Part shown: piece after piece, positions 3,365 to 37,479 of the stretch
Layout of the letters: each line of letters begins with the position of its first letter
Numbering within the stretch: position 1 is the first letter of the stretch
Assembly: GCA_947503525.1 (NCBI GenBank)
Contig: CANNEA010000004.1
Location: 310,001-374,000 of the forward strand
DNA length: 64,000 bases
Direction of reading: 5' to 3'
Source: an uncultured Carboxylicivirga sp.
GTDB lineage: Bacteria > Bacteroidota > Bacteroidia > Bacteroidales > Marinilabiliaceae
Notes under the pieces: generated by a model
The model's database searches: none
What the model was told of the DNA's origin: nothing
The model's input: the letters and a program-made list of their open reading frames with translations, nothing else
Position numbers and translations under genes: made by a program

Positions 3365-3404
3365 TATACTTACCGATCAATAAATGAAATGTACTTAATG
3401 ATTC
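3365..3404 (-). promoter_or_regulatory. Candidate HTCS operator before GH82 gene
   Basis: Written on the plus strand, TGTACTTAATGATTC lies at 3390-3404 and a weaker copy TATACTTACCGATCA at 3365-3379, 25 bases apart. The element lies 50-90 bases upstream of the GH82 start codon and belongs to the family of 15-base elements found before every transcription unit of the carrageenan region. The regulator assignment is inferred. Confidence 0.45.
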
Positions 3405-3449
3405 ATTTACTCACAAGTAAAAATCAACTAGCTATTCTATAAGGCAAGA

Positions 3450-3483
3450 AATCCCATGATTCTAGGATACAAATCATGGGATT
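3450..3483 (-). terminator. Hairpin terminator after T9SS sulfatase gene
   Basis: AATCCCATGATT (3450-3461) and AATCATGGGATT (3472-3483) form a perfect 12-bp stem with a 10-base loop. It lies 24 bases past the stop of the sulfatase gene that ends at 3508. The T-run on the minus strand is weak (TTTCTTGCC), so termination may be partial. Confidence 0.6.
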
Positions 3484-3507
3484 CTTAAACTTGACTTGCT
3501 ATTTTCT

Positions 3508-5298
3508 TTACCGGCTCACAATTATACTTTTACTACAGCTTTTCTCTCCGATCGAAGCCTTAAAAATGTATGAACCATTAGGGATAACATTATCAATGGG
3601 CAAAACAAAAGCGCCATTCCCACTTTGACCTAAACTCAATTGCAATTGCAGCAAACGACCACTCATATCATACAATGCAGCATCACACTTTTGTCCTTCA
3701 CTTGAATCAAACTCAATATATAAGGTATTTGAAACCGGATTAGGATAAATATAAGCGTCCACTAAATTCTCAGATTGAATAGAAATGTTAGTAGGTTTAT
3801 CGTAATCATTCGGATCATATAAGTCACCAAATGTCTTTCCAAAATTAGGCATATTGGTATCGCTCCATGAATCTTCAAAGCCGTAGCTGGGATTATCAAA
3901 AAACTCAGGCCTAATATGAGACCAGGTCCATTGATAGGCTGCCTCTTTCATTGATGCAACAATTTCTGGATATTGGGCTGATAGGTCTGTGGTTTCAGCG
4001 ATGTCATTTGTCAAATTATATAAGAACCATCTTCCATTGCCTGGCGTGTAGAGCTTAAAATTATTTTCCACTATTCCTGTATAATTACTTCCATTGTGTT
4101 GACGCATTACAAAAACAGGCACATCAGCCCGTGGATTGCTTTTATTAATTATATCATCCCATACATTAAGTCCGTCATAAATTTTGCTTTCAGGAATTGT
4201 AGCTCCGGCCAAGAAAGCAAAAGTAGGATAGAAATCGAGCGATGAGAAATTGCTTGAGTGTGTATAGGCCTGAGGAACATTTCCATTGGGCCAATGAAAA
4301 AACATGGGTACCCTGAAACCTCCTTCGTAAGCATCACCCTTACCACCTCGCAAAGGACTATTTAACGCCCCTCTTGACGTTTTACCCCCATTATCACTCA
4401 GGAAGATAATAAGCGTATTATCATATTCTCCCGTGCTTTTTAATTGATTAACCAAACGCTGCACATTATTATCCACATTGTACATCATGGCAGTATAAGT
4501 CAAACGCTCCGATCCATCAGGTGCTGCATTATTACCAAGCTCAGTTTTAATTTCATTAATATCAGATTGCATAGCCTGAACTGGCGTATGAGGTGCATTA
4601 TAGGACAAAAATAAGAAAAATGGCTCCGTATTTTGTGAGGCATTTTCAATAAACTGTATTCCTGCATCAGTTAAAACATCAGTACAATACGCTCCAGATG
4701 CAGAAGCCACATAATCGGAATTTTCCATCATTGGACGTTTGTAGTCGCCAGTATAATTTCCAACACTATAATTGGATGGATCATAAGTAGAGTGGTTCAA
4801 CCAGCTATTTGAAAAGTATTCATGCCCACCACCCAAAAAGCCATAAAAATAATCGAAACCTCTGCTGTTTGGATGAAATTCGGTTTCTTCACCCAAATGC
4901 CACTTTCCAATTAATCCCGTATAATAATCGGCTTCGTCCAAAACCTTGCTTATAAACTTTTCTTCAGCATTAATGCCATTGCCCGAGAAGGCTGCTAAAT
5001 TGAATTGAGCTCCTAAATCATGCGGTGCTCTCCCTGTCATTATACTGGTTCTGCTTGGCCCGCAAAAAGGATGCGTAACGTAGGCTGAAGTAAAAACAGT
5101 GCCCTGATTGGCCAATAGATCGAGATTAGGTGTATGAATATCGCTGGCTGCATCTGGCATAAAACCCACATCGGAGTATCCCAAATCATCCATCAAAATT
5201 AACAGGATATTTGGACGTGAAGCCTGGCCAACTACCTCTCCATTAATCAAGATGATTGCAAATGCCAGAAACAAATATTTCTTAATGAAATTATTCAT
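3508..5298 (-). CDS. S1 sulfatase with T9SS sorting domain
   Basis: 596 residues. Signal peptide to about residue 25, then an arylsulfatase-type alkaline phosphatase fold: metal-binding Asp37-Asp38 in LILMDDLGYSDVGF; the formylglycine motif CGPSR at 79-83, with Cys79 the residue to be oxidised; IGKWHLGEE; and IFLSDNGGKTSRG. A T9SS C-terminal domain occupies about residues 510-596 (IYPNPVSNTLYIEF). It is the only one of the ten sulfatases here with this tail, so it is probably exported or surface-bound and may act on the polymer itself. It is last in the GH16-GH16-sulfatase unit, 15 bases behind the GH16 gene. The sulfate position attacked cannot be read from the sequence. Confidence 0.88.
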   Translation of the reverse strand: MNNFIKKYLFLAFAIILINGEVVGQASRPNILLILMDDLGYSDVGFMPDAASDIHTPNLDLLANQGTVFTSAYVTHPFCGPSRTSIMTGRAPHDLGAQFNLAAFSGNGINAEEKFISKVLDEADYYTGLIGKWHLGEETEFHPNSRGFDYFYGFLGGGHEYFSNSWLNHSTYDPSNYSVGNYTGDYKRPMMENSDYVASASGAYCTDVLTDAGIQFIENASQNTEPFFLFLSYNAPHTPVQAMQSDINEIKTELGNNAAPDGSERLTYTAMMYNVDNNVQRLVNQLKSTGEYDNTLIIFLSDNGGKTSRGALNSPLRGGKGDAYEGGFRVPMFFHWPNGNVPQAYTHSSNFSSLDFYPTFAFLAGATIPESKIYDGLNVWDDIINKSNPRADVPVFVMRQHNGSNYTGIVENNFKLYTPGNGRWFLYNLTNDIAETTDLSAQYPEIVASMKEAAYQWTWSHIRPEFFDNPSYGFEDSWSDTNMPNFGKTFGDLYDPNDYDKPTNISIQSENLVDAYIYPNPVSNTLYIEFDSSEGQKCDAALYDMSGRLLQLQLSLGQSGNGAFVLPIDNVIPNGSYIFKASIGEKSCSKSIIVSR

Positions 5299-5313
5299 AT
5301 AAATTTTTTGAAA

Positions 5314-6948
5314 TTAATTGATGATCACCTTTTTTGTCGTTGCATGTTTCCCTGTAGATAATTGAACGAAATATATACCGGTTACCAAATCAGCTACTCC
5401 TATTTCAATTGAGGAAGTTTGTTTTTTTAAGGTTCTGACCAATACTCCCATATTATTGTAAATATTTACCACACCCTTCTCAATAGAATCAATATTTAAT
5501 ACATTATTTACCGGATTCGGATATAGTTTGAATTCAATGGCTTCAACATCCTCCAAGCTAGTTGCATTGTCGTGTTCAAATATGATATCATCGATATATA
5601 GCAAGGCATCAGTTCCATTAATATCATCTGCTCGTAAAATCATACGTATGCGATCACCATTTGCAAGACTTGGATCAGATGATGTACTTCTTGAAAAAGT
5701 TTGAGATAACTCCACCCACTTACCTTTTTCAACGCCCCTCAAATCAACCGTCATACTTTGCCATGGATTTTCAAGAATAAAATCGATTTCGTCAATACTG
5801 GTAGAAGGATCCATCCACACCTTAAAATACAGGGTATTGTTTCCTGCTGGCAAGTCTAATGAACCATATGGAGTGAACATGGCATAGTTTCCTGAAAAGG
5901 AACCAGATTGCTTAAACCGAGCACTAAAATCCCCACTTGCAGATTTTTCATCTTTAATTCGCCATGGAATATTTCCTGCATTCCACCATTGAACACTTCT
6001 TCCCTGGAAATAAAATGGTCCTTCAAAGCCAAGCGCATTATAATCAGGTCCTGTAATTTCCTTTTGCCAAATACGAACGTAATCAATTTTGAATTCAGCA
6101 GGTGAGCTTAAATCAGCTGCTGCCGGCAGTCCATACCAAGAAAACACTTCAGTATCAAGCCAAAGTTCCATAGGATGCTGATGTCTCCACTGATCATTGG
6201 CTTCCAATTCAGTACGTGTAGCATGACGTACTAACTCACCATTAAAATAGGTCTTTATATAATCTTTATCCCACTCAAATCCATAAACAAAATAATCACT
6301 GGCCAATCGTTCATCCATTATATCTTCTACTTTCCAGTTTTTATGATCAGCTGCTTTATCAGGATCCCAATTAATCATGTTTGTTCGATACTTTCGCTCC
6401 AAACTTTCAGGTTTATTTTCAGGATTACCAATAGGTCGCTTACCATAATTCTCGGTCATATCAATCTCAGAATGATAACCTGTTGTCCAGAATGCAGAAG
6501 TTACAGGGGCATCAGCACCTTTACAACGAATTTCCATATAGCCATACCTGAAGTAGCTCTCACTCATAATGCAAGCTTGCGTGATAGGCTGACTATTATC
6601 GGCAGCTGAAGTAGATCCTCCATACCATGTACCATCATGAATTTCATTAGCAAATTGAAAGGTAGGCTCCCATTGACTCATTAATACGAGATCGCCGTTT
6701 TCAACTTTTACATTATGGCTAACAAATTGGCCAGGTGCACGGCCTTTCCACTTAGTTCTGTAATCATTATTCTCACCTAAAATCCACCACTTCGTTTTGT
6801 CCAATTCGCTTCCATTAAACTCATCGCTAACTTGAGAGTTTAATATCCAACCAGCCGAGTTGGACGGATCAGACATTGGGTAATCTTGCCCAAACAACTG
6901 ACTAACTGCTAATAATGCTATTAATAGTAAAGATAATTTCATATTCAT
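5314..6948 (-). CDS. GH16 endo-galactanase (carrageenase/agarase group) with binding module and T9SS tail
   Basis: Start taken at 6948 (MNMKLSLLL); the longer frame to 7011 would overlap the upstream gene and hide the signal peptide. This gives 544 residues: signal peptide; GH16 jelly-roll catalytic domain to about residue 300 with SEIDMTENYG, in which E161 (nucleophile), D163 and E166 (acid/base) form the ExDxxE signature; a second jelly-roll module at about 305-450 (FKVWMDPSTSIDEIDF, KGKWVELSQTF, LLYIDDIIFEH); and a T9SS domain (LYPNPVNNVLNI). The KGADAPVTSAFW block fits the kappa-carrageenase/porphyranase/agarase side of GH16, and the locus favours a carrageenan or furcellaran substrate. 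The start is 4 bases behind the upstream GH16 stop, so the two are co-transcribed. Confidence 0.82.
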   Translation of the reverse strand: MNMKLSLLLIALLAVSQLFGQDYPMSDPSNSAGWILNSQVSDEFNGSELDKTKWWILGENNDYRTKWKGRAPGQFVSHNVKVENGDLVLMSQWEPTFQFANEIHDGTWYGGSTSAADNSQPITQACIMSESYFRYGYMEIRCKGADAPVTSAFWTTGYHSEIDMTENYGKRPIGNPENKPESLERKYRTNMINWDPDKAADHKNWKVEDIMDERLASDYFVYGFEWDKDYIKTYFNGELVRHATRTELEANDQWRHQHPMELWLDTEVFSWYGLPAAADLSSPAEFKIDYVRIWQKEITGPDYNALGFEGPFYFQGRSVQWWNAGNIPWRIKDEKSASGDFSARFKQSGSFSGNYAMFTPYGSLDLPAGNNTLYFKVWMDPSTSIDEIDFILENPWQSMTVDLRGVEKGKWVELSQTFSRSTSSDPSLANGDRIRMILRADDINGTDALLYIDDIIFEHDNATSLEDVEAIEFKLYPNPVNNVLNIDSIEKGVVNIYNNMGVLVRTLKKQTSSIEIGVADLVTGIYFVQLSTGKHATTKKVIIN

Positions 6949-6952
6949 CGGT

Positions 6953-7927
6953 TTATTTAGTTTTTTGCCAAACACGGATGTAGTCAATTTCGTAATCCAT
7001 AAAACCACCATCCTTTTGTTCTTGCGTTCCGTTCTGTGTTAAATCTTGCTTGCTTTGTGGTATTCCATGCCACGGAAATATTTCATTATCGAGCCAAATG
7101 GAAATTGGCTTTGTTGCTACATATGCGTCATAATTCTCATCAACATCTCGATTTTCTTTGGCCCAATTTGTGGCCTCCTCTGCCGTAACCGATGAAAACA
7201 ATTGACCATCGATATAGTATTTAATTCCATTCTTATCCCACTCAATGCCGTACACATGAAAATCATCCGCTCCACGAAATCCCATATCTTTGCGTTCAGT
7301 ATAAGATGGCTTACCCCTTAGGTGTTCCCAATCACGAATAGACCACCAGAGTTCGCTATCCAAATGTTCTTTCCCTTTTGCACGACCATCGCCATACATT
7401 TCAAAAAAGTCAAACTCCAACTTATCACCCATTGACCAAAAAGCACTTGTAACTTCAGCATCAGCTGCTTTACTCCTAATCTCAATATATCCGTATTTAA
7501 AATACTTCCGACCAATAAAGCAAGCTGTTGTTATATTCTCATAAGGCATAGCCTCACCAAACACAGGTTTGTGTATTTCCTTTGAAAAAGGAAAATCGGG
7601 CTCCCAGCGCACTTCAAGTTTTAATTTACCATCCTCTAATCGATAGTTTCTTCCTGAAAATTGAGAAGGAGCTCTTCCTTTCCAGACTTTCTTTTTTGGC
7701 TTATCTGGATGTTTATAAAATGGTTCCCCATCCTTAAATTCACCAACTATGTACCATCGTTCTTCATCAATTTCTAAAGTATTAAACTCATCACTAACCG
7801 ACAGGTTTAGTCTCCAATCTCCACTATTATCTGGATCTGATTGTGGCAGATATTGTCCCACAGTCAAATTTGGACTCGAGCAAATTAAAAGAAGAATTAT
7901 GATTATTTTATGGATACTTAAATGCAT
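6953..7927 (-). CDS. GH16 endo-galactanase, single-domain paralogue
   Basis: 324 residues: signal peptide to about residue 24 (ending TVGQ), then one GH16 domain with no extra module or T9SS tail. The catalytic signature is LEFDFFEMYGD with E171, D173 and E176. It shares with its downstream neighbour the frame SDPDNSGDWRLNLSVSDEFN, WKGRAPSQF, KAADAEVTSAFW and IDYIRVWQ, so the pair arose by duplication. The changed active-site strand (EFDFFE against EIDMTE) suggests a different sulfation preference. Without a sorting tail it is probably periplasmic or freely secreted, acting on smaller products. It is first gene of its unit, behind the operator pair at 7985-8021. Confidence 0.82.
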   Translation of the reverse strand: MHLSIHKIIIILLLICSSPNLTVGQYLPQSDPDNSGDWRLNLSVSDEFNTLEIDEERWYIVGEFKDGEPFYKHPDKPKKKVWKGRAPSQFSGRNYRLEDGKLKLEVRWEPDFPFSKEIHKPVFGEAMPYENITTACFIGRKYFKYGYIEIRSKAADAEVTSAFWSMGDKLEFDFFEMYGDGRAKGKEHLDSELWWSIRDWEHLRGKPSYTERKDMGFRGADDFHVYGIEWDKNGIKYYIDGQLFSSVTAEEATNWAKENRDVDENYDAYVATKPISIWLDNEIFPWHGIPQSKQDLTQNGTQEQKDGGFMDYEIDYIRVWQKTK

Positions 7928-7984
7928 CGTACTTCATTGAATTAAATAATGTAGTACAAACCAACATTTTCTAATATAATTTTA

Positions 7985-8021
7985 TATCCGTCTCGGTAAA
8001 TAGCTTTGTCTCTCTCAATAC
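7985..8021 (-). promoter_or_regulatory. Candidate HTCS operator pair before GH16 genes
   Basis: Plus-strand reading TATCCGTCTCGGTAA (7985-7999) and TGTCTCTCTCAATAC (8007-8021) are direct repeats 22 bases apart, 58-94 bases upstream of the GH16 start. Both align with the shared 15-base element of this locus. The copies are imperfect, and the assignment rests on the other units. Confidence 0.4.
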
Positions 8022-8057
8022 ATATCTTTGAAAAATGCACTATTACAATCAAATGGA

Positions 8058-8088
8058 AAAGCCTCAAGGAACTAGTCCATGAGGCTTT
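8058..8088 (-). terminator. Hairpin terminator after four-sulfatase unit
   Basis: AAAGCCTCA (8058-8066) pairs with TGAGGCTTT (8080-8088), a perfect 9-bp stem, followed on the minus strand by TTTTCCATTT. It lies 23 bases after the stop codon of the sulfatase gene ending at 8111. Confidence 0.7.
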
Positions 8089-8110: not shown

Positions 8111-9583
8111 TTAGTTCTGTTCTACTTCTTTAAAAAGTGGAAATCGTGTTGAAGGCTGGTGCTGCTCTTTCATAATTTGTTTGATCTGAGCTACAATTTC
8201 AGGATGTTGATTGGCTACATCTGTAGTTTCAGCTCGGTCTGTTTTAAGATTAAATAATTCAAGTTTTGCCTTTTCCGGATTATTTAATTTATAAATCACA
8301 CCTTTCCAATCTCCCATTCTTACAGCTTGCATTCCTTGTTTAAGTGCAAACTCCCAATACAAAAAGTCGTGTTCTTTCTGTTTCTTCTTCCCTGTTAATG
8401 TTGGTAAAAATGAGATGCCATCTATTTGAGAATCGATTTCAATACCAGCTACATCTGCACATGTTGGCAACACATCCCAAAAAGCTGAAACATGATTACT
8501 AACTGAACCTGGTTTTGTTTTGGCCGGCCACTTCACAATCAAAGGCGTTCTGATTCCTCCTTCGTATAAATCGCGTTTGTAGCCCCTAAGTCCGCCTCCA
8601 CTATTGAAGAAATCAGGGTCAGCTCCACCTTCAAGATGGGGGCCGTTATCACTCGACAACATGACAATGGTATTTTCAGCAATACCCAACTCATCTAATT
8701 TATTCATTATCTGACCTACATAAACATCAATGCGATACATCATGGCTGCAAAAACAGCCTTTGGAATTTCTTGCGAACAATACTTCGAGATAACAATATC
8801 CGGTCCATAATCAGATGCACCTCGATACTGCCCTTTACTATTAGTCCCGGTATATGGTTTATCCTCAACAAACTTTCCTTTGAACTTAGCTAATATGGAA
8901 TCGTCTGGCGCAATAATTTCGGCATGAGGCTGGATTAATGGTATGTATGCAAAAAAAGGCTTATCCTTATTATCCTCTATAAACTCCAAGGTTTTATCTT
9001 GAACCACATCAGGTGCATAAGTAACTGTATTTGTCCAATCATTGCCTTCCAAGTAATGCTTTTCTTGATTATCCCATAAATAGGTCGGATAATAGCGATG
9101 TGCCATACGCTGACAATTATATCCGAAAAACTGATCAAAGCCTTGATTAACCGCATCACCTTCCGAGCCAATGTACCCTAAGCCCCATTTGCCAAATGCA
9201 CCAGTGGCATATCCAGCATTCTTTAAAACTTCAGCGATAGTCAAGTATTCGGCCGGAATAGGGGTTTGCCCTTCCCGATCCTTTAATTCCTTATTTCCAC
9301 GAATAGCAGTATGCCCGGTATGAAGACCCGTCATTAACACCGATCGTGATGGTGCGCATACTGTAGATCCACTATAGTGCTGAGTAAACCTCATTCCTTC
9401 TGCAGCCAACTTATCTATATTTGGTGTAGGAAAATGAGTTTGACCGTAACATCCAAAATCACCATAACCTGCATCATCGGCTAAAATGTAAATGATATTT
9501 GGCTTCTTATCACCTTTCTTTTGTGCATTTGTACAAGACAAGAAAAGCGTTAATATCAAACTTAAATAAATAAGTATTTTCAT
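8111..9583 (-). CDS. S1 sulfatase lipoprotein (arylsulfatase A-like)
   Basis: Start taken at 9583 (MKILIYLSL), which gives a clean lipoprotein signal with Cys17 (LFLSC); the frame upstream to 9649 runs through a palindrome and lacks signal character. 490 residues. Metal-binding Asp36-Asp37 in LADDAGYGDFGCYG, formylglycine motif CAPSR with Cys76, FGKWGLGYIGSEG, and MLSSDNGPHLEGGADP. The overall pattern is that of arylsulfatase A-like family S1 enzymes. The lipid anchor places it on the periplasmic face or the outer membrane. It is last gene of the four-sulfatase unit, separated from the gene before it by 109 bases that hold a perfect palindrome. Confidence 0.87.
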   Translation of the reverse strand: MKILIYLSLILTLFLSCTNAQKKGDKKPNIIYILADDAGYGDFGCYGQTHFPTPNIDKLAAEGMRFTQHYSGSTVCAPSRSVLMTGLHTGHTAIRGNKELKDREGQTPIPAEYLTIAEVLKNAGYATGAFGKWGLGYIGSEGDAVNQGFDQFFGYNCQRMAHRYYPTYLWDNQEKHYLEGNDWTNTVTYAPDVVQDKTLEFIEDNKDKPFFAYIPLIQPHAEIIAPDDSILAKFKGKFVEDKPYTGTNSKGQYRGASDYGPDIVISKYCSQEIPKAVFAAMMYRIDVYVGQIMNKLDELGIAENTIVMLSSDNGPHLEGGADPDFFNSGGGLRGYKRDLYEGGIRTPLIVKWPAKTKPGSVSNHVSAFWDVLPTCADVAGIEIDSQIDGISFLPTLTGKKKQKEHDFLYWEFALKQGMQAVRMGDWKGVIYKLNNPEKAKLELFNLKTDRAETTDVANQHPEIVAQIKQIMKEQHQPSTRFPLFKEVEQN

Positions 9584-9614
9584 ATGTCTAAAATTTTGTT
9601 TTTTTACCACATGG

Positions 9615-9632
9615 GTGCGATAGCTATCGCAC
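9615..9632. repeat. Perfect 18-base palindrome between sulfatase genes
   Basis: GTGCGATAGCTATCGCAC reads the same on both strands. An outer CACAT (9608-9612) and ATGTG (9656-9660) add a second dyad. On the minus strand it is followed by CCCATGTGGTAAAAAAAC, so it could attenuate transcription between two sulfatase genes or be one copy of a dispersed extragenic palindrome. No second copy was noticed in the window. Confidence 0.6.
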
Positions 9633-9692
9633 TCGCCAATATCAAACAAACTCCTATGTGTGAAGCTATTTTCATGGCTCGTTTCATCTCTT

Positions 9693-11216
9693 TTATTTTA
9701 ATAGATTCAAATCACGTCTAGCTTTTATTGTTGGATCAGCATCTGTATCCACATAGTTAGGTGGTTTCTTATGATGAATCCGTGGTGCTTTCGCTCTTTC
9801 TGTTGGCACCCATTGGCGCATATCAGCTACTATCTTTTTATACTTTTTGTCATGAATCAGATTCCTCCATTCCATTGGGTCATTATCCAAATCATAAAGC
9901 TCCTCCGCGCCTGAAAGATTACTAATGTAATGCCAACGTTCGTCCATTACTGATGTTCCTTCGTTTGATACTGTCACACCTGGATAATTCCATTCGGTTT
10001 CCGGATCAGACAGTAAGGCCGAGAAATCGTGTCCATCCAATTCTTTTGCTGGAAGACCACACAAACTCACAAGGGTTGGATAAATATCAATTAGGCTAAC
10101 GGTTCTATTACTATAGGATCCTTTACTCATATTTGGCATACGAACCAATAAAGGTGTTTTAGTTGACTCCGACCAAAGCGTATTCTTTTTAAAACGAAGT
10201 TTTTCACCTAAATGCCAACCATGATCTCCCCATATGACAACGATGGTATTATCGGCATATCCACTTTTTTCGAGTGCATCCATTACAATACCCAAACAAG
10301 CATCGGCAAAACTGACATTAGCCAGATAGGCTCTTGTTACTTCTTGCTCAAGTCCATGTTTCTTAATCCATTTATATTCATCAGTGGCTTCATGTAGTTG
10401 TGACCCATCAGGGTTTACAATATCGGTCAAATCATCCGTAAGCACCTTTGGCGCCTTAATTGAATCCAAGGAATACTTATCAAAAAACTCCTTTGGTACA
10501 AACCAAGGTAAATGGGGTTTAATAAAACCTAATGCCAGAAAAAAGGGTTTGTCATGCTCCTTATTTAATTGCTCAGCTCCCCAAGTAGCTACTCTGTAGT
10601 CAACAGTTTCCTCAAAGCCTTTTTTAGTTGGTCCCCAACTTAGCTTACATGTTTTGCTTATATAGTCGGGATTCTTTACTCCATTAATGATTCCAGACTT
10701 TCCAGAAGTCACCATACTTTGATCAGCCCCATCCTTTACATATCGTCGTGATCGAGCGTGCTCATCAAAAGCCCAATGTCCAAAGTCAACTCCATTTGCA
10801 GTGGCATGTTTATGAAATATCTTGCCATTAGAAACGGTATGATAACCATGTTTGGAAAAATACTCAGGAAGCGTTGCTTGCTCTTTTACCAAATCGGTAT
10901 AAATCATGTTTGTTGCATTGCCATACACCCCTGTACGATTGGGCATAAAACCGGATAGAACTGCAGAACGTGATGGCCCACAAATAGGTGCAGCACAAAC
11001 AGCATTATTAAAAATAACAGCTCCCTCATTACAGAACTTATCCATGTTAGGCGTTTGAGCCTGAATATGTCCACCCAAGGGTTGAATCCAATCGTTAATA
11101 TCATCTATGGCAATAAACAATACATTGGGTCGATCATTATTTTGTCCCGTAAGTGCTTGACCAAAGCTAATATTAAGGAGCATTATAGAAGTAAGTATTA
11201 TGATTATACGGCTCAT
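9693..11216 (-). CDS. S1 sulfatase (iduronate-2-sulfatase-like)
   Basis: 507 residues: signal peptide to about residue 20 (ISFGQ), Asp38-Asp39 in FIAIDDINDWIQPLGGH, formylglycine motif CGPSR at 79-83 with Cys79, VSNGKIFHK, and VVIWGDHGWHLGEKLRFKK. The DDIND and WGDHGWHLGE blocks are typical of the iduronate-2-sulfatase-like branch of S1, members of which remove 2-O-sulfates in other systems. That makes a galactose 2-sulfate a reasonable guess here, but the regiochemistry is not shown by sequence alone. It is third gene of the four-sulfatase unit, 15 bases behind the preceding one. Confidence 0.86.
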   Translation of the reverse strand: MSRIIIILTSIMLLNISFGQALTGQNNDRPNVLFIAIDDINDWIQPLGGHIQAQTPNMDKFCNEGAVIFNNAVCAAPICGPSRSAVLSGFMPNRTGVYGNATNMIYTDLVKEQATLPEYFSKHGYHTVSNGKIFHKHATANGVDFGHWAFDEHARSRRYVKDGADQSMVTSGKSGIINGVKNPDYISKTCKLSWGPTKKGFEETVDYRVATWGAEQLNKEHDKPFFLALGFIKPHLPWFVPKEFFDKYSLDSIKAPKVLTDDLTDIVNPDGSQLHEATDEYKWIKKHGLEQEVTRAYLANVSFADACLGIVMDALEKSGYADNTIVVIWGDHGWHLGEKLRFKKNTLWSESTKTPLLVRMPNMSKGSYSNRTVSLIDIYPTLVSLCGLPAKELDGHDFSALLSDPETEWNYPGVTVSNEGTSVMDERWHYISNLSGAEELYDLDNDPMEWRNLIHDKKYKKIVADMRQWVPTERAKAPRIHHKKPPNYVDTDADPTIKARRDLNLLK

Positions 11217-11231
11217 TTTCTTCTGTCTAAA

Positions 11232-12659: not shown

Positions 12660-12669
12660 AGCTGAATGG

Positions 12670-14124: not shown

Positions 14125-14224
14125 AAAGTGTGATTTTGATCTGATTTTAAAACAATATATGATTTACATATCACTGCAATATCACATTCTTAACTAATTA
14201 CGATGTTTTTCTGAATAAATAGAT

Positions 14225-14260
14225 TGTGTTGCCTCGTATATTTCGTGTACTTCTCGGTAA
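14225..14260 (-). promoter_or_regulatory. Candidate HTCS operator before four-sulfatase unit
   Basis: TGTACTTCTCGGTAA at 14246-14260 is the best single match to the locus element; a degenerate copy TGTGTTGCCTCGTAT lies 21 bases away at 14225-14239. The rest of the 343-base gene-free stretch 14125-14467 holds the terminator of the neighbouring unit and no other feature I can name. Confidence 0.5.
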
Positions 14261-15976: not shown

Positions 15977-16058
15977 ATCATTTTTTTGTAAGACCAATAT
16001 CTTTATTAATTTATCAGTAATATTATTCATTATTACCTCTCACTCGTTCGTTTTTACC

Positions 16059-18704: not shown

Positions 18705-18790
18705 TCTTTTGGATTAAATCTTAAAAACTAAACTTGATACACAAAAGAGATTATATTTAATGAATTCTAAGTATGTGAGTATATATTGCT

Positions 18791-18828
18791 TGTACTTAAT
18801 GGTAAAAATAAATTGTACTTCTCAATAA
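18791..18828 (-). promoter_or_regulatory. Candidate HTCS operator pair before GH150-like copy 1
   Basis: TGTACTTAATGGTAA (18791-18805) and TGTACTTCTCAATAA (18814-18828) are two clear direct repeats 23 bases apart, 87-124 bases upstream of the start. This is the cleanest pair for the TGTACTT half of the element. Confidence 0.55.
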
Positions 18829-20405: not shown

Positions 20406-20501
20406 TCTGCTATTTTTACGACTAATTATTTTTTTACATTCAGATTTAAATCCTGCTTTTTTAAGAAATTTTCATCTTGTATTCATGAGTTTTACTAGAA
20501 T

Positions 20502-23001: not shown

Positions 23002-23037
23002 TATATTTAGGAATAAATAAAATATACCTCTCAATCC
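23002..23037 (-). promoter_or_regulatory. Candidate HTCS operator pair before GH2 copy 1
   Basis: TATATTTAGGAATAA (23002-23016) and TATACCTCTCAATCC (23023-23037) are weak direct repeats exactly 21 bases apart, about 100-133 bases upstream of the GH2 start. Each differs from the consensus at several positions, so support comes mainly from spacing and location. Confidence 0.35.
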
Positions 23038-24808: not shown

Positions 24809-24874
24809 AAAGCAATGCATTTAAGTTTACTGATATTTATTTATATGCAAGGAAGAAAGAATCAAATAGCAAGG

Positions 24875-24910
24875 TGTACTTCTAAATAAATCCACAGAAC
24901 TCATGAGTAA
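24875..24910 (-). promoter_or_regulatory. Candidate HTCS operator before binding-module gene
   Basis: TGTACTTCTAAATAA at 24875-24889 plus a degenerate AGAACTCATGAGTAA 21 bases on at 24896-24910. It lies 66-102 bases upstream of the start codon at 24808. Confidence 0.45.
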
Positions 24911-25625: not shown

Positions 25626-25630
25626 TAGGA

Positions 25631-28580: not shown

Positions 28581-28637
28581 ATCCCTAAACAACAGTCGAA
28601 AATATGGCTTAACTAAACCACAACTGTATTTAGGGAT
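28581..28637 (-). terminator. Long inverted repeat between GH2 copy 2 and GH150-like copy 2
   Basis: ATCCCTAAA (28581-28589) pairs with TTTAGGGAT (28629-28637); ACAG/CTGT extends the stem inward. On the minus strand it is followed by ATTTTATTTTTATAC. It can end the GH2 transcript, but its right arm is part of an operator copy, so it may be an attenuator or a regulatory dyad. Confidence 0.45.
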
Positions 28638-28660
28638 AAATTTGGTGTGTTTGTTGGTAA
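28625..28660 (-). promoter_or_regulatory. Candidate HTCS operator pair before GH150-like copy 2
   Basis: TGTATTTAGGGATAA (28625-28639) and TGTGTTTGTTGGTAA (28646-28660), direct repeats exactly 21 bases apart, 67-102 bases upstream of the start. The pair fits TGTnnTTnnnGGTAA well and shows the GGTAA half most clearly. Confidence 0.55.
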
Positions 28661-28669
28661 ATCCTTAAC

Positions 28670-31012: not shown

Positions 31013-31015
31013 AAC

Positions 31016-32494
31016 CTATTTTTTAGCTTTTTGATAAGCCTTGTATTCTTTCCCCAGGCTTTTAAATCCAATCTCAATGCCTTCTTGTATTTGCTTATAC
31101 AACTCTGGTTTATCACTCTTAACCCATTCTAATATCTCCACCGAATTAGGAACGATTGGCTCATATACATCACTTACAGGTGTCATTTCCTTATCGTATC
31201 GACACGTTAGCTTTCTAAGTTTCTTTAGCGTTGACGAATATTGTGGATCTGATGCCAAATTGTTTAGTTCCTGCGGATCCTTCTCTAAATCATATAATTC
31301 TTCGATTGGTTTTTGATCTGCAAAAAACAAGGCTTCACTTTCGCTTAGCTTACCTTCCTCTTTTAAAGTGCGCATAACATGTACTGCAGGTCGATAAAAC
31401 TCTAAATATGCTTGATGTGCATCCCAAGCTTGTGTATTATCATTTCTAATGTACTTCCATTTATCAGATGTTACTGATCGCATTTTCTCTTCTACTTCGT
31501 CCCATAAATCGCGTGCCGAATAAACATATTCCCGTTTAAATCGCTTATCAAAAATAGCTTGTCCAGTCATGAACTTCGGAACTTCTAGTCCTGCAAAATC
31601 CAAAATAGTAGCAGTTATATCAGTTGCGCTAATAATATCCTTACGCACGATGCCTTTACCTATTTTATTTGGGTAATACATGATAAATGGAATACGTAAA
31701 CCCGGATCGTGCACGTAGCCTTTTCCGCGTATATTACAACGTCCGTTATCGCCAATAAAAATAATAATGGTATTATCAGCCATACCCTTGTCTTCCAACT
31801 CTTGAAAAATCATTCCCACTTCGTTGTCCATGTATTCAACCTGGTCGAGATACTTGGCCCAATCTAAATGAATAGTTGGATGATCAGCCATGTATTGAGG
31901 CAACTCTACCTCATCAGGATTCACCGGATGACTAGACTGATCACGCACGTCATTCCACCAATCACCACGATGGGTTACCTGTAACTGTATTTGCGCAAAG
32001 AACGGTTGATCAGCTTCATCAAATCGATCGTATTTATCAAACAAACCAAAACTCTCTTTTCCATCCCACTCTCCTATGGCCTTGTGCTTAAAATTAACAT
32101 CAATCTTACGACCTTTATTCATCACCTTTTCATGACCAAGAATACAGGTATAACCAGCCTCGCGTAGAAAATAGGTAAATGGCTTAAAATCCTCATCTAA
32201 GGGAATATTTCTATTACTGCGATGATGATGAGCATTGATTTTTATTTGGTGCGTTCCAGTCAACATTGCAGATCGACTAGGCGAACAAATTGAATTAGTA
32301 ACAAAACAATTATCAAAGCGAATACCTTCTTCAGCTAGCTTATTCAGATGTGGCGTTTTAACGGCTTTCATGCCATAACACTCCAAATCAGTACTCATAT
32401 CCTCCGCCATCAACCAAATAATATTTGGCTTCTCTTGAGCATTGCCTAAAAGGATTACTAGGTTTATTAATATTGCTATTATAGTTTTTCTCAT
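31016..32494 (-). CDS. S1 sulfatase
   Basis: Start taken at 32494 (MRKTIIAILINLV): the longer frame to 32542 overlaps the upstream gene and lacks a signal. 492 residues: signal peptide to about residue 20; Glu31-Asp32 in WLMAEDMSTDLECYG; formylglycine motif CSPSR at 70-74 (Cys70); IFIGDNGRCNIRGKGYVHD. The AEDM start and the HQIKINAHHHRSNR block after the motif resemble the heparan N-sulfatase-like branch, as in the sulfatase at 14468. Its start lies 10 bases after the upstream sulfatase stop and its end 3 bases before GH2 copy 2, so the three are tightly co-transcribed. Periplasmic location inferred. Confidence 0.86.
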   Translation of the reverse strand: MRKTIIAILINLVILLGNAQEKPNIIWLMAEDMSTDLECYGMKAVKTPHLNKLAEEGIRFDNCFVTNSICSPSRSAMLTGTHQIKINAHHHRSNRNIPLDEDFKPFTYFLREAGYTCILGHEKVMNKGRKIDVNFKHKAIGEWDGKESFGLFDKYDRFDEADQPFFAQIQLQVTHRGDWWNDVRDQSSHPVNPDEVELPQYMADHPTIHLDWAKYLDQVEYMDNEVGMIFQELEDKGMADNTIIIFIGDNGRCNIRGKGYVHDPGLRIPFIMYYPNKIGKGIVRKDIISATDITATILDFAGLEVPKFMTGQAIFDKRFKREYVYSARDLWDEVEEKMRSVTSDKWKYIRNDNTQAWDAHQAYLEFYRPAVHVMRTLKEEGKLSESEALFFADQKPIEELYDLEKDPQELNNLASDPQYSSTLKKLRKLTCRYDKEMTPVSDVYEPIVPNSVEILEWVKSDKPELYKQIQEGIEIGFKSLGKEYKAYQKAKK

Positions 32495-32504
32495 TTCACT
32501 ATTT

Positions 32505-33833
32505 TTAGAATTCGGGTACCGCTTCTTTTTCCCAGGCCTCAAGTCTCGCTTTTAGTTCCTTAGTACGCTTAGGATGTACAAAAACCAAATTACTTACCTC
32601 TCCAATATCTTCTTTCACATTATACAACTGCACATTGCCACTATGGTATTTTATCAGTTTCCAATCACCATCGATAATGGCAGCATACTGATCTTCGTAG
32701 GATCTTAAAAAATATAAATCACGTTTCGATATATCATCACCTTTCAATAATGGCATCAAACTAACACCGTTGACTTGTTGATCTTTCTGATCTTTTCCGG
32801 AGGCTATTTCAAGCAATGTGGAATACACATCCAATGTTTGAATAGGTGTTTCGCAATGAGTCCCTGGCTTTGTTACACCAGGATAATAAACCATAAATGG
32901 TACACGTGCCCCACCTTCATTCAAAGTATAACCTCCATTCTTCTTACCTCTCAAAGGAAAATTAGTAAAGTATCCACCTTGATCTGAAGTAAATAGTATG
33001 ACTGTATTATCAGCTATACCTTTCTCTTCAAGAGCAGCCCTTACACGTCCAACAGATTCATCCATGGCCTCAACCATAGCTCCATAATTAGCATATTTAG
33101 CTTCCATCCCTTTTGCCTTATACTTCTCAATTAAATCCTTACGGCCAATATGAGGTCCATGCACGTTGTAATACCATAGGTTAAGCATAAACGGCTCATC
33201 CTTTTCGTATTCCGAAATAAAACGTTCAGCTTCATCGCTTAATACATCAGTCAGGTAATCCTCTTTGATTTCTTTCAAAGGATTACCATGCACAAAAAAT
33301 GGAGGATAGTAGCTTTTAGGATGACCATGATTACCAGTTCCATATTGCGCATCAAATCCCTGATGAATTGGATGATAGGCTTCTATTCCTGAATGCCATT
33401 TTCCAATGAACTTATTGTAGTAGCCAAATTCCTTTAAGCGTTCGGCATAGGTTATTTCTTCAAGTGGAAGATGATTAATTGATGGCATTTGCACAGGGTC
33501 TTTCACCCACATGTTGTTTTCACCATCCATGTAGCCTAATTTATTCTCATTTTCAATAATATGTCGCACCATCTGAAAACGAACAGGTTCTTTTCCAGTC
33601 AGCATTGAAGCTCTACTTGGGCTACAAGAAGGTGATGCGATATACGCTCTTTGAAAATCCATTCCATCTTTAGCTAGTTGATCGATATTAGGCGTTTCAA
33701 ACAAAGGGTTTCGGTAGCCTAAATCCGCCCATCCTAGATCGTCGACAAACAAAACAACTATATTAGGTTGTTTCTGAGCACAACTAATAAATAAACTACT
33801 AATAAATGCTATTAATAAAAGTGTCTTCTTCAT
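32505..33833 (-). CDS. S1 sulfatase lipoprotein, short form
   Basis: 442 residues, the shortest sulfatase here. Lipoprotein signal with Cys18 (LFISC); Asp31-Asp32 in VLFVDDLGWADLGYRNPLFETP; formylglycine motif CSPSR at 70-74 (Cys70); FIGKWHSGIEAYHP; LFTSDQGGYFTNFPLRGKK. In the last motif the common SDNGG is SDQGG, a change at a residue that normally helps bind calcium or substrate. The C-terminal subdomain ends early (LEAWEKEAVPEF). It heads the sulfatase-sulfatase-GH2 unit and has an operator pair with exact 21-base spacing upstream. Confidence 0.86.
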   Translation of the reverse strand: MKKTLLLIAFISSLFISCAQKQPNIVVLFVDDLGWADLGYRNPLFETPNIDQLAKDGMDFQRAYIASPSCSPSRASMLTGKEPVRFQMVRHIIENENKLGYMDGENNMWVKDPVQMPSINHLPLEEITYAERLKEFGYYNKFIGKWHSGIEAYHPIHQGFDAQYGTGNHGHPKSYYPPFFVHGNPLKEIKEDYLTDVLSDEAERFISEYEKDEPFMLNLWYYNVHGPHIGRKDLIEKYKAKGMEAKYANYGAMVEAMDESVGRVRAALEEKGIADNTVILFTSDQGGYFTNFPLRGKKNGGYTLNEGGARVPFMVYYPGVTKPGTHCETPIQTLDVYSTLLEIASGKDQKDQQVNGVSLMPLLKGDDISKRDLYFLRSYEDQYAAIIDGDWKLIKYHSGNVQLYNVKEDIGEVSNLVFVHPKRTKELKARLEAWEKEAVPEF

Positions 33834-33900
33834 TGATATTGATATTATTCTGTAATGCTGTATTTTCTAAAATAAAGTAATACTAAATGATGAATAAGGG

Positions 33901-33936
33901 TGTTCTCTGAGGTTAAAAGCTTGTACTCTGCCGTCA
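33901..33936 (-). promoter_or_regulatory. Candidate HTCS operator pair before sulfatase-sulfatase-GH2 unit
   Basis: TGTTCTCTGAGGTTA (33901-33915) and TGTACTCTGCCGTCA (33922-33936), direct repeats exactly 21 bases apart, 68-103 bases upstream of the start codon. Confidence 0.5.
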
Positions 33937-34055
33937 AACAATCCTGCATCACAGAACTTATCATTCATATAATCACCCTGATAACAACAACAATCAAAAC
34001 AGGAATTACTTAAAGTTGTACCACAATGATTATTATCTAAGTCTAAAATGGATTA

Positions 34056-35873
34056 TTAATCCTTCTTAAAACCCTTATTTCCTTTAACCTTAATACTTGA
34101 CGCACTCTTTTTATCCAACTTAAATGCTTTTGGGAACTCTCCATCATATGTATTATCACTAACATCAATATTCGAACAATTCATGAATTCAAACAAAGGT
34201 GCATTAGGATACAGTTGCTTGTGCGACTTTACTTTTTTAATGCTATTATCCTTAATAACTAATCCATCAACCCTATCAGCAATGACAATACGATTATCGA
34301 AAGTTTCAATTGTATTATTCATAAAACGAATATTACGGTCGTAGGCCATAGAATCATCAAATGATTTACCTAAACGTGGCGTAACATACATAACCGCATG
34401 TTCTGACCCACTATAAGCCACATACTTAAATTCATTATTTTGTATCAACACATCTTCTACTGCACCCGATTCATACCAATAGAAAGTTTCTCCACGAAAC
34501 AAAATGGAAGACATCATAGATGATAGTTTGTTATTTTCTATCACAATCTTCTTTGGTGTTTTAATAACAATGTTTCTTGCACGATGATGTTGTATGGTAC
34601 ATCCTCGCATAACAAAAGTTGGATTCCAAGTCTTATTTTCAAGAATATCCCCTTTTTTTAAATTAGCAGGCAACTTATTTTTAAATCGAAGAATGGTGTA
34701 TTTATCATTAATTGTTTCAACCTGCTCAACTACGTTAACCGACTTCCGTGATGGATCAGGCTGATGAATAAACCACATTTCATCTCCAGCATTAGCAAAG
34801 TCAAAGCCCAATTGTTGAAAATGCTCTAATCCATATCGTAAAGTATATTCATCAATAAGCTCGTCAACTTCCACATAGGTACCATGGACATTTGTTCCAT
34901 CGTCCAACATGCTTTCAAAGCGGCAATTCTCAACAACAATATCTCCTTTACAATTGCAGAAATGAGTGGCATCGGCTATAATCGAAACAACACGTTCCGA
35001 ACCTTCTTGTACATAAACACCACAATTAGACAAAATGGCTGTTTCTGATTTCTCCATCAGAAATCCCATACCCAAGGCATGGTGTACAATAACACTATCC
35101 ATCTTTATATTCTGTGAAGCATTTACGTGTACAGCCGGTGCATATCTGTTTTCACCTTTTAAACCTTTTGAATTAAGTACCATCCCTACCTCTGGGTAAT
35201 GCTTTAGCTTTTCATGAAATCGAAGAATGCCATTAGCCCGTTCTTCTACTTTGGTAGGTCTACTGCTCATATCATAGGCACCATGAGCCACATCTTTTGT
35301 TTTGGGGTTAAAAGCTAAACTACTTCCCACGTCAGAATAACTGTATCCATCAACGTTCGGAAAGGTCAACCTTCCATTTTTCACCTCCCATGAGAAACCT
35401 GACTTAGCAGGTTTTATATCTCGCCAACCTTCCTGTTCGTTTACAGCAATAACTTCGCCTTGAAAAGTAAAGGGAATATCCCAATCGATGGAAAGATTAT
35501 TCATTGTTACATTCGCACATTCTTCAAATAATAATGGTAAAACCTGACCATGAAAAATCAATTGAGCACCATTACCTTCAATCTCCACAGATTGAAATTT
35601 TTGAAAGGGAAATATGATCTTCTTAAAACCATTCTCATGATTGGTAATGAAGCAATATTTATCCAATGCATAGTCTGGCATAAAACGATAGATGCCTTTT
35701 TCAAAGACCAACTTAATTTCTTTGTCTTGTGCATTCTCAATGGCTTTTCTCACTACCATTGTCATATCTTCAGATGTAGGCTTCAACTTAATTATTTCCT
35801 TTGCTTGTATGGACAAGGCATTTAGAAACAAAGCACCTAACACTAATAAACCTATATTTTTCATTTTTTTCAT
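34056..35873 (-). CDS. GH110 alpha-1,3-galactosidase
   Basis: Start taken at 35873 (MKKMKNIGLLVLG); ATGs at 35894 and 35864 are also in frame. 605 residues, the usual GH110 length: signal peptide, then a right-handed beta-helix with VTMNNLSIDWDIPFTF, VHHALGMGFLMEKSE, ESMLDDGTNVHGTYVEV (Asp324-Asp325, the likely catalytic region) and MRGCTIQHHRARNIVI. These blocks match exo-alpha-1,3-galactosidases of GH110, first known from blood-group B cleavage. A marine Pseudoalteromonas member was reported to act on lambda-carrageenan-type linkages. Here it would remove alpha-1,3-galactose after desulfation, alternating with the GH2 enzymes. It lies 28 bases after the sulfatase at 35902. Confidence 0.72.
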   Translation of the reverse strand: MKKMKNIGLLVLGALFLNALSIQAKEIIKLKPTSEDMTMVVRKAIENAQDKEIKLVFEKGIYRFMPDYALDKYCFITNHENGFKKIIFPFQKFQSVEIEGNGAQLIFHGQVLPLLFEECANVTMNNLSIDWDIPFTFQGEVIAVNEQEGWRDIKPAKSGFSWEVKNGRLTFPNVDGYSYSDVGSSLAFNPKTKDVAHGAYDMSSRPTKVEERANGILRFHEKLKHYPEVGMVLNSKGLKGENRYAPAVHVNASQNIKMDSVIVHHALGMGFLMEKSETAILSNCGVYVQEGSERVVSIIADATHFCNCKGDIVVENCRFESMLDDGTNVHGTYVEVDELIDEYTLRYGLEHFQQLGFDFANAGDEMWFIHQPDPSRKSVNVVEQVETINDKYTILRFKNKLPANLKKGDILENKTWNPTFVMRGCTIQHHRARNIVIKTPKKIVIENNKLSSMMSSILFRGETFYWYESGAVEDVLIQNNEFKYVAYSGSEHAVMYVTPRLGKSFDDSMAYDRNIRFMNNTIETFDNRIVIADRVDGLVIKDNSIKKVKSHKQLYPNAPLFEFMNCSNIDVSDNTYDGEFPKAFKLDKKSASSIKVKGNKGFKKD

Positions 35874-35901
35874 AGTACGTTTTCTTACAATCATAAGTAC
35901 C

Positions 35902-37359
35902 TTACAGGTTTACACCTGTTCCTTGCATAGAGTTATCATGATCCCACATGATAACCCATGGATCTTTTGTTTTTAACTGAAAACCTTTAAGCCCTGCTTT
36001 CATCTTTTCCAAAACATCAGAATATTCTTCATCTTTAGCGAGGTTATGAAGCTCATTGGGATCTTTATCCAGATCGTATAACTCAAATTCGGCTCTAAAT
36101 AAATACTCATTCACGTTTCGATTGCCATATAAAGCTTCCTTACGGCGGTACACACCTTGCCAGGTTGAAGATGCCCACAAATCAGAAGCGAATGGATATT
36201 CTAATCGCCAAGCAGTATTCCATATTAATTTATAGTTCTTATGGCGATAGGTTCTCATTGGATAATACATGGTAATTTCATGAAAAGTATGTGATGCATA
36301 AATTTCATCCCATCCTTCGGCCAGATTTTCATTCATAATTGGATTAAAAGAACGTCCATGAAAGTCAACATTCTTTGGTGTTACATTAACCATATCCAGT
36401 ATGGTTGGCGTTAAATCCGCCCATGAAACCATTGAGTTATTAACGGTTCCCTGTATTGTTTGAGATGGATCCTTGATGATACAGGGTAAACTAATGCCAG
36501 GTTCATAAACCGTAGTTTTGGCTCCCGGAAAAGCCATTCCGTTATCTGATATATAAATGACTATGGTATTGTCAATTTTACCTGCATCCTTAAGGTGCTG
36601 CATTAATAAACCAAAACCTTGATCTATTCGTGATATACTCTGATAGTATTGAGTCAATTCCTCTCTACATTCTTTAGTATCCGGCAAAAAGTCAGGAACT
36701 AAAACATCAGCAGGATTATAAGTTACCTCTTCAACACCTTCATATCCCTCTGTTCTGTTTCCAAAATTATTTGGTTCGTCCCAATTATCAGGTTTAAAGG
36801 GCGCACCTCTATGCGGGTCACTTGTACAGAAATACAAGAAGAAAGGCTTTTCAGAATTTAATACATCAACACATTTATTGGCCATTTCAACGGTATTTCG
36901 CTCATTGGCCTCTAATACCGTATTAAAGTGATAAACTTTTTCAGGAGCCAAATGATACTTGCCAATACGAGCAGTCTCGTAACCAACCTCTTCCAACATT
37001 ACAGGTAATGAATGTACATTATCAAATGTACTGAAATGATGATAGTCGTGCACATGTCCATATGAGCCCGTAGCATGTCCAAACTTGCCTGTCAAAATAA
37101 CAGAACGACTAGCTGCACAACTTGCACTTGTACAATATGCATTATTAAAAATAATGCCCTCTTTAGCTAAATTATCTAAGTTCGGTGTTTGGATAATGGG
37201 ATTTCCATAACATCCCAAAGCATCCTTCCCATGATCATCAGATACAAAAAGAATAACATTAGGTTTATCAGATTGCACTTCCTTGGAATGCGTGCATGCT
37301 GATAATAACGTCATCACTAAAAAAACGATTACCAGACCACTACTATTCTTCATATTCAT
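35902..37359 (-). CDS. S1 sulfatase lipoprotein with CAASR motif
   Basis: 485 residues (Met3 at 37353 is an alternative start). Lipoprotein signal with Cys22 (LLSAC); Asp41-Asp42 in FVSDDHGKDALGCYGNP; formylglycine motif CAASR at 81-85 (Cys81), where Ala replaces the common Pro; IGKYHLAPEKVYHF; IYISDNGMAFPGAKTTVYEPG. The FVSDDHGKDALGCYGN block is seen in the heparan N-sulfatase-like branch. It heads a two-gene unit with the GH110 gene, which suggests it clears a sulfate that blocks alpha-galactose removal; this is inference from co-transcription. A good operator copy lies about 105 bases upstream. Confidence 0.86.
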   Translation of the reverse strand: MNMKNSSGLVIVFLVMTLLSACTHSKEVQSDKPNVILFVSDDHGKDALGCYGNPIIQTPNLDNLAKEGIIFNNAYCTSASCAASRSVILTGKFGHATGSYGHVHDYHHFSTFDNVHSLPVMLEEVGYETARIGKYHLAPEKVYHFNTVLEANERNTVEMANKCVDVLNSEKPFFLYFCTSDPHRGAPFKPDNWDEPNNFGNRTEGYEGVEEVTYNPADVLVPDFLPDTKECREELTQYYQSISRIDQGFGLLMQHLKDAGKIDNTIVIYISDNGMAFPGAKTTVYEPGISLPCIIKDPSQTIQGTVNNSMVSWADLTPTILDMVNVTPKNVDFHGRSFNPIMNENLAEGWDEIYASHTFHEITMYYPMRTYRHKNYKLIWNTAWRLEYPFASDLWASSTWQGVYRRKEALYGNRNVNEYLFRAEFELYDLDKDPNELHNLAKDEEYSDVLEKMKAGLKGFQLKTKDPWVIMWDHDNSMQGTGVNL

Positions 37360-37464
37360 TTACTTTCTTTTTGATTAAGATTATCACTTTAACCATATAG
37401 TGAAAACACCTATCACAAAAGAAATAAAATCAAGAAACAAGCCTATCTCTAAGCGTTCAATTTT

Positions 37465-37479
37465 TGTACTTTGGAGTAA
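37465..37479 (-). promoter_or_regulatory. Candidate HTCS operator before sulfatase-GH110 unit
   Basis: TGTACTTTGGAGTAA, 11 of 15 positions equal to the best element (14246), 106-120 bases upstream of the start at 37359 and 42 bases from the end of the HTCS gene. No second copy is convincing. Confidence 0.45.

What the first reader, a model, noticed from the sequence alone, without database searches (positions are those of the whole stretch)
3365..37479. A shared 15-base element, often as direct repeats 21-23 bases apart, precedes all eight minus-strand units of the carrageenan locus
Reading spacers by eye I found TGTACTTCTCGGTAA-like elements before the GH82, GH16, four-sulfatase, GH150-like copy 1, GH2, binding-module, GH150-like copy 2, sulfatase-sulfatase-GH2 and sulfatase-GH110 genes, 55-130 bases from the first ATG. 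Pairs at 28625/28646 and 33901/33922 are exactly 21 bases apart; 18791/18814 is 23. None was noticed in the 43.5-54 kb block. An AraC-type HTCS is encoded at the end of the run, so this is probably its operon-wide operator. The weak copies (23002, 24896, 14225) were found by looking at the expected distance and count for less.
Basis: partly seen in the sequence, partly recalled or inferred. Interest (0 to 1): 0.8.

Follow-up and report, generated by a model that had tools for sequence, protein, structure and literature searches.

The report
Shared switch of a carrageenan island
A marine bacterium carries a roughly 117-kilobase inserted block of genes for eating the seaweed polymer carrageenan, and most operons in it start with the same two-part landing site, very probably for sensor-regulators encoded in the block; such sites are a known kind, but this regulon appears undescribed.

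Summary
Blind two-box motif discovery in the nine spacers finds a 15-base box repeated at 21 bp (0 of 200 shuffles as good); each spacer is found by a model trained on the other eight. An unused signal agrees: a -7 promoter element lies exactly 20 bp past the proximal box, also at nine held-out sites (0 of 1000 shuffles).

The locus runs about 70 kb further left, with a second, paralogous HTCS and more sites, and lies between a tRNA-Arg plus integrase and a 66-bp direct repeat at window 43189-43254: a ~117-kb island whose border explains the motif-free 43.5-54 kb block. The 18 best own-genome promoter matches are all inside it.

The motif follows one HTCS clade: found in all five other genomes known to have it (one by a single weak site); no credible site in ten carrageenan neighbourhoods that have the AraC regulator but no such HTCS nearby. 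Most likely it is the HTCS operator, activating from the -33 position. Direct repeats 21 bp apart are already known for Bacteroides HTCSs: new member of a known kind. Binding is inferred. A 21- versus 22-bp split between the two HTCSs is only suggestive.

The parts
   Evidence: 21.6 bits with the nine-site matrix, held out; -7-like CATTTTTA 20 bp on; Pfam PF12831 for the gene
3365..3404 (-). operator before the GH82 iota-carrageenase-like gene 1784-3313 (25 bp as parsed; alternative 3369/3390 at 21 bp)
   Evidence: gene matches iota-carrageenases 3lmw and 1h80, E about 1e-52; not recovered by the promoter model R2
7985..8021 (-). operator (22 bp) before the GH16-GH16-sulfatase unit 3508-7927
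   Evidence: -7-like TTGGTTTG 20 bp on; Pfam
14204..14260 (-). three tandem boxes (14246, 14225, 14204; 21 bp steps) before the four-sulfatase unit 8111-14124; no clear -7 element at 20 bp
18791..18828 (-). operator (23 bp as parsed; weak further box at 18770) before the GH150-like plus sulfatase unit 14468-18704
   Evidence: CGLA domains
23002..23037 (-). operator (21 bp) before the GH2 plus sulfatase unit 18888-22904
   Evidence: -7-like TACCTTAG 20 bp on
24875..24910 (-). operator (21 bp) before the secreted (Por tail) protein 23261-24820
   Evidence: -7 element poor, 3 of 6
28625..28660 (-). operator (21 bp) before the full-length lambda-carrageenase-like GH150 unit 24960-28558
   Evidence: -7-like TATTTTCG 20 bp on; CGLA domains 1e-198 to 1e-36
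33901..33936 (-). operator (21 bp) before the sulfatase-sulfatase-GH2 unit 28670-33833
   Evidence: -7-like TTACTTTA 20 bp on
37444..37479 (-). operator (21 bp) before the sulfatase plus GLAA-B/GH110-type unit 34056-37359
   Evidence: -7-like TTCTTTTG 20 bp on
41817..41853 (.). near-palindromic two-box site between HTCS-1 and the plus-strand CBM9 gene 41918-42694; on the + strand 64 bp before that gene with TATTTTAG 19 bp on
Evidence: Orientation not settled
37521..41648 (-). HTCS-1: propeller and Y_Y_Y sensor, HisKA, HATPase, receiver, AraC-type HTH in one 1375-aa protein
   Evidence: Pfam
43189..43254 (+). right border of the island: 66-bp direct repeat (one mismatch) of the tRNA-Arg 3' end and downstream at C4:235943-236008

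Best explanation
The element is the operator of carrageenan-locus hybrid two-component systems. Two AraC-type DNA-binding domains of HTCS-1 (and very probably of its paralogue HTCS-2) bind two tandem 15-bp boxes 21 (or 22) bp apart, two helical turns, on one face of the DNA. The proximal box ends 20 bp before the TAnnTTTG -7 element, so it covers about -47 to -33, the place of the -33 element, and the regulator activates sigma-A RNA polymerase by contact. Carrageenan fragments in the periplasm would switch the sensor on, the receiver would be phosphorylated, and some 18 candidate promoters of one ~117-kb island would be induced together. Shown by sequence: the pair, its spacing, its promoter phasing, its confinement to the island, its company with one HTCS clade. 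Inferred: binding, activation, ligand, and which HTCS acts where.
For: Two-box significance and leave-one-out. -7 element exactly 20 bp downstream: 18 sites, mean 4.11 of 6 against 2.06, 0 of 500 shuffles; nine held-out sites 4.67, 0 of 1000. Eight held-out pairs of 18 bits or more in C4:230-414 kb, 0 in 360 kb of background; 17 of 17 such pairs on the minus strand. G154 (another family; HTCS 53% identical, DBD 79%): 8 of 8 intergenic pairs are 21 bp with a -7 element of 4 or more of 6 at 19-21 bp; 285 kb of control has 3 pairs, all in genes. Of 16 family members searched, close HTCSs are in G687, G689, G690 only, and only these have promoter-model hits with E < 0.01. Recognition helices shared within the clade; the 13 other own-genome HTCS DBDs examined are at most 38% identical. 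HTCS motifs known to be direct repeats averaging 21 bp (PMC3878776, passages).
Against: No binding or expression data. Two neighbourhoods of HTCSs of this clade (G687:C36 and G690:C29, 60 kb each) have no composite hit of 16 or more. R2 misses the GH82 site. HTCS-1's own promoter has no clear site in the usual place. The E < 0.01 cut was chosen afterwards.
Confidence: 0.87

Rival explanations
1. The stand-alone AraC-family regulator of the left block (C4:279273-280130, similar in role to CgrA of Zobellia) binds the motif.
For: Its orthologues (69-82%) occur in the same motif-bearing genomes G154, G687, G689, G690 and not in G686, G692, G688. AraC proteins can also use 21-bp direct repeats (recalled).
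Against: Eleven of 14 further AraC-bearing genomes were examined: ten neighbourhoods without an HTCS-like gene have no intergenic site of 16 or more although they carry carrageenan genes (GH127, GH16, sulfatase or aldehyde dehydrogenase homologues). The AraC DBD is 27% identical to that of HTCS-1. Caveat: those genomes were not searched as wholes for the HTCS clade, save G088 (best 31%).
Confidence: 0.05
2. One paralogue (HTCS-2 or HTCS-1) does all the work, or the two split the sites; the operator is not HTCS-1's alone.
For: DBDs 69% identical with near-identical recognition helices. Left-block sites are 22 bp apart in 4 of 5, right-block sites in 1 of 13 (Fisher p 0.008, post hoc).
Against: This is a variant of the best explanation, not its opposite.
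Confidence: 0.3
3. The boxes are a promoter element of a special sigma factor, or leftovers of promoter duplication, with no regulator.
For: Always phased to the -7 element.
Against: The -7 element is the ordinary sigma-A type; the pair is absent from 360 kb of background at 18 bits; between boxes and -7 the sequences differ; the pair recurs in other genera with the HTCS clade.
Confidence: 0.04

Closest known systems
HTCS operators of Bacteroides (Ravcheev et al. 2013, PMC3878776; passages seen)
   Same: Direct repeats of two conserved sites averaging 21 bp apart upstream of polysaccharide genes, assigned to an HTCS with AraC-type HTH.
   Different: Other glycans and a gut genus; in the passages seen no fixed distance to the -7 element is given; here two paralogous HTCSs and one island are involved.
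Carrageenan regulon of Zobellia galactanivorans with AraC regulator CgrA (PMC5698469; passages seen)
   Same: Carrageenan PUL with GH127, sulfatases, D-AnG catabolism and an AraC regulator.
   Different: There the PUL has an AraC and no susCD pair, and in the passages seen no operator or HTCS is named; here HTCSs at both ends, SusCD pairs inside, and lambda-type GH150 genes.
tRNA-integrated genomic islands (Islander, PMC4383910; search listing and start of abstract only)
   Same: tRNA gene, adjacent tyrosine integrase, displaced tRNA 3'-end fragment at the far border.
   Different: Cargo is a carrageenan system with its regulators; no conjugation genes were recognised among the proteins scanned; empty site not examined.

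Membership tests
HTCS operator (Bacteroides type) | direct repeat of two conserved boxes about 21 bp apart | tested here: met
   spacing sweep and blind discovery
HTCS operator (Bacteroides type) | linked regulator with sensor, kinase, receiver and AraC HTH in one protein | tested here: met
   HTCS-1; HTCS-2
HTCS operator (Bacteroides type) | conserved before functionally related genes in genomes with the related regulator | tested here: met
   two clade neighbourhoods without a hit
HTCS operator (Bacteroides type) | specific binding by the regulator | not testable with these tools
   none
AraC (CgrA-like) operator | motif present where the AraC orthologue is, whatever the HTCS | tested here: not met
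   0 of 10 neighbourhoods without an HTCS nearby; G844 stretch lacked the AraC gene itself
tRNA-integrated genomic island | tRNA gene plus integrase at one end, direct repeat of the tRNA 3' end at the other | tested here: met
tRNA-integrated genomic island | uninterrupted site in relatives | not tested

The most novel reading that the evidence does not exclude
Two anciently diverged HTCS paralogues with the same recognition helices divide one ~117-kb carrageenan island by half-site spacing: HTCS-1 reads 21-bp operators (lambda side), HTCS-2 reads 22-bp operators (kappa/iota side, including the AraC gene), so one base of spacer decides which sensor controls a gene, and this HTCS layer was laid over an older AraC-run pathway.
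Probability: 0.17. Interest if true: 0.75.

Novelty: new member of a known kind. Interest (0 to 1): 0.55.

Why it matters
It gives a sharp operator, with exact promoter geometry, for a clade of HTCSs in carrageenan loci, so the regulon can be read off in genomes with that clade. It suggests that a whole catabolic system sits with its own regulators and operators on one tRNA-bounded island, and it offers a clean case of regulatory layering (HTCS over AraC) and of paralogous sensors facing nearly identical sites.

Tried and rejected
Single-box searches: uninformative genome-wide (202 matches against 327 for the reversed control). First model R1 (nine sites, no -7): 10 of 15 own-genome hits in the locus, best E 0.0101, five elsewhere; replaced by R2. 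Blind left-block discovery with one fixed spacing: not beyond shuffles at 22 bp (81.0; maximum of 40 shuffles 85.0); with 21 or 22 allowed it is (98.5-99.8 in five runs; maximum of 60 shuffles 88.4). Spacing code in relatives: beside the HTCS-2-like genes (G687:C30, G690:C32 left) there was one hit each, one of them in a gene, too few to test it. GH150 loci from named genomes: Reichenbachiella (L047) and two non-Bacteroidota loci (L048, L050) gave only in-gene pairs; the Bacteroidetes MAG locus L049 has one good intergenic site (23.0 bits, 21 bp) and one weak in-gene pair; its regulator was not looked for. The off-locus R1 hits on C1 and C6 were fetched but their genes were not analysed. AraC as binder: rejected. 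No operator for a carrageenan HTCS was seen in the listings (open-licence PMC papers only; listings are capped). An earlier count said seven HTCS copies in G687; one search lists six over 43% identity, and the report uses six. The same notebook says 17 own-genome R2 hits below E 0.02; one search shows 15.
Full report
WHAT WAS CLAIMED.

The score, 138, compares with 66 +/- 4 for 200 dinucleotide-preserving shuffles (0 of 200 reach it). With one spacing imposed on all nine, 21 bp scores 120 and no other spacing from 15 to 39 exceeds 86. A model trained on eight spacers finds the ninth in 9 of 9 cases, at most 0.0062 expected per spacer by the rate in 360 kb of the same genome. Single boxes alone are not informative. 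On the coding strand the box resembles TTACCGATAAGTACA.

AN INDEPENDENT CHECK: THE PROMOTER. Sigma-A promoters of Bacteroidota carry TAnnTTTG at the -7 region, -12 to -5 (PMC7366714 and PMC9723704, passages). This was not used in finding the sites. With 18 sites aligned by the end of the proximal box, the match to TAnnTTTG peaks exactly 20 bp downstream: 4.11 of 6 against 2.06 in shuffles, z 7.6, 0 of 500. The proximal box then covers about -47 to -33 and the distal one about -68 to -54, where an activator would stand in for the -33 element. Sites 3365, 14225 and 18791 do not fit as parsed; each has a further or alternative box at a 21-bp step, an after-the-fact remark.

THE LOCUS IS BIGGER, AND LOOKS LIKE AN ISLAND. 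Scanning C4:230-414 kb with the nine-site matrix gives eight held-out pairs of 18 bits or more, none in 360 kb of background; all 17 pairs of 18 or more are called on the minus strand. Two of the eight are in the window: 582-617 before an FAD-dependent oxidoreductase and 41817-41853 between HTCS-1 and a plus-strand CBM9 gene. The other six lie left of the window; a weaker one at C4:304544 (16.2 bits) is 56 bp before an 852-aa gene. The left part encodes three SusCD pairs, two GH127, GH16, GH2, sulfatases, a GntP permease, PfkB kinase, KDPG-type aldolase, aldehyde dehydrogenase, a stand-alone AraC and, at the far end, HTCS-2, 45% identical to HTCS-1 overall and 69% in the DNA-binding domain. 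Beyond HTCS-2 are a tyrosine integrase (C4:236261-237457) and a tRNA-Arg (C4:235886-235960). The tRNA 3' end and what follows (66 bp, one mismatch) recur at C4:353189-353254, window 43189-43254. So the carrageenan system sits in a ~117-kb tRNA-bounded island, and its right border falls between the last motif-bearing unit and the motif-free 43.5-54 kb block. G+C does not differ from the background (0.371 vs 0.367), and the empty site was not examined.

SPECIFICITY. A 64-position promoter model (two boxes plus -7, 14 own sites) run on the whole genome has its 18 best of 37 matches inside the locus, 15 of them with E < 0.02; the first elsewhere has E = 0.42. Fourteen of the 18 were training sites, one (C4:329635) is inside a gene, the GH82 site is not recovered, and 150 of 3,337 candidate places were scored.

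WHICH PROTEIN. (a) The helices LNRTHFxQKVK and TGFKSRxHFxKLFKEK are shared by HTCS-1, HTCS-2 and the G154 homologue (another family, same class); the 13 other own-genome HTCS DBDs examined are at most 38% identical. (b) In G154, 213.7 kb of carrageenan contigs hold 11 pairs of 14 bits or more: 8 intergenic, all 21 bp, 8 of 8 with a -7 match of 4 or more of 6 at 19-21 bp, and 3 in genes with 1-2 of 6. A control of 285 kb holds 3, all in genes, one of them with a -7 match of 4. (c) Of 16 family members, HTCS-1 homologues over 43% identity were listed in G687 (six), G690 (five) and G689 (one, interrupted) only, and only these have promoter-model hits with E < 0.01; the other 13 have best E 0.06-0.48 (cut-off set afterwards, match lists capped). 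G686 has two GH150 genes but neither a close HTCS nor a hit. The fetched neighbourhoods of the three (800 kb, chosen around the HTCSs and model hits) hold 29 composite hits of 16 or more, 27 intergenic; background is 1 in 360 kb (own) and 2 in 260 kb (G154). The composite score favours the 20-bp distance by construction, and G687:C36 and G690:C29 have no hit. (d) The serious rival is the stand-alone AraC, whose orthologues occur in the same motif-bearing genomes. In G154's family 14 further genomes of 397 have it; 11 neighbourhoods were fetched (382,753 bases). The ten without an HTCS-like gene have no intergenic hit of 16 or more (one in-gene hit in G107) although they carry homologues of the carrageenan genes; the one with such an HTCS (G936) has an intergenic hit of 20.2, but no gene start follows it and its -7 element is poor. 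Whether the ten carry such an HTCS elsewhere was not searched, save G088 (best 31%). (e) A tree joins the close HTCSs in one clade (100/100), HTCS-1 with G689 and G690 copies, HTCS-2 with other G687 and G690 copies, so the two types are older than these genomes.

A POSSIBLE CASCADE. The AraC gene has the operator in this genome (composite 32.3, 22 bp, 115 bp before the start) and in G690 (22.1, 22 bp, 96 bp), weak ones at a like distance in G687 (10.1) and G936 (8.4), none in G689 or G154, and 2.8 or less in the 13 other AraC-bearing genomes. The HTCS layer may have been placed above the older AraC regulator in some lineages.

A POSSIBLE SPACING CODE. Left-block sites are 22 bp apart in 4 of 5, right-block sites in 1 of 13 (Fisher p 0.008, post hoc). 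In the three relatives most hits are 21 bp, and the two 22-bp hits in G690 include the AraC promoter. A test per paralogue was not possible.

MECHANISM. Most likely carrageenan fragments are sensed in the periplasm by the propeller and Y_Y_Y region; phosphorylation of the receiver frees the DNA-binding domain, as studied for Bacteroides HTCSs (PMC11253607, passages; HTCS-1 has the SHIP receiver motif, HTCS-2 reads SHLP); two domains bind the tandem boxes two turns apart and recruit sigma-A polymerase. All steps after the DNA geometry are inferred from the family.

COMPARISON AND NOVELTY. Ravcheev et al. (PMC3878776, passages) found that predicted HTCS motifs in Bacteroides are direct repeats averaging 21 bp. 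This is a new member of that kind, with a new substrate and lineage and clear promoter phasing. I saw no published operator for a carrageenan HTCS in the listings.

Noticed in passing
window 43189-43254; C4:235886-237457 (L057:5886-7457): tRNA-Arg, tyrosine integrase and a 66-bp direct repeat bound the carrageenan locus: a ~117-kb island. The empty site was not examined.
   Followed up: partly
L057:12340-16479 (C4:242340-246479): Second HTCS of the same type at the far end of the locus, 45% identical overall, DBD 69%; its receiver reads SHLP where most HTCSs have S/C-HIP.
   Followed up: yes
L235:2409-3716 (G689:C3): In G689 the HTCS-1 orthologue is interrupted by an insert with a DDE_5 transposase gene, while operator sites remain in the neighbourhood: a natural disruption.
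   Followed up: partly
G687 and G690 (L201-L233, L239, L240): The HTCS clade is expanded: six copies in G687 and five in G690 over 43% identity to HTCS-1, not all with recognisable sites nearby.
   Followed up: partly
C4:279273-280130 (L055:9273-10130): AraC regulator of the kappa/iota part is itself preceded by the operator (22 bp) here and in G690.
   Followed up: partly
C3:46314-46634 (L031, L063): A third, distant CGLA-type domain in a 1085-aa frame with another HTCS about 14 kb away (C3:60679); similar domains in some same-genus genomes.
   Followed up: no
window 43516-54076: Motif-free block outside the island border with GH88, GH43, DUF1961 and an AraC-type regulator at 49805-51148.
   Followed up: no
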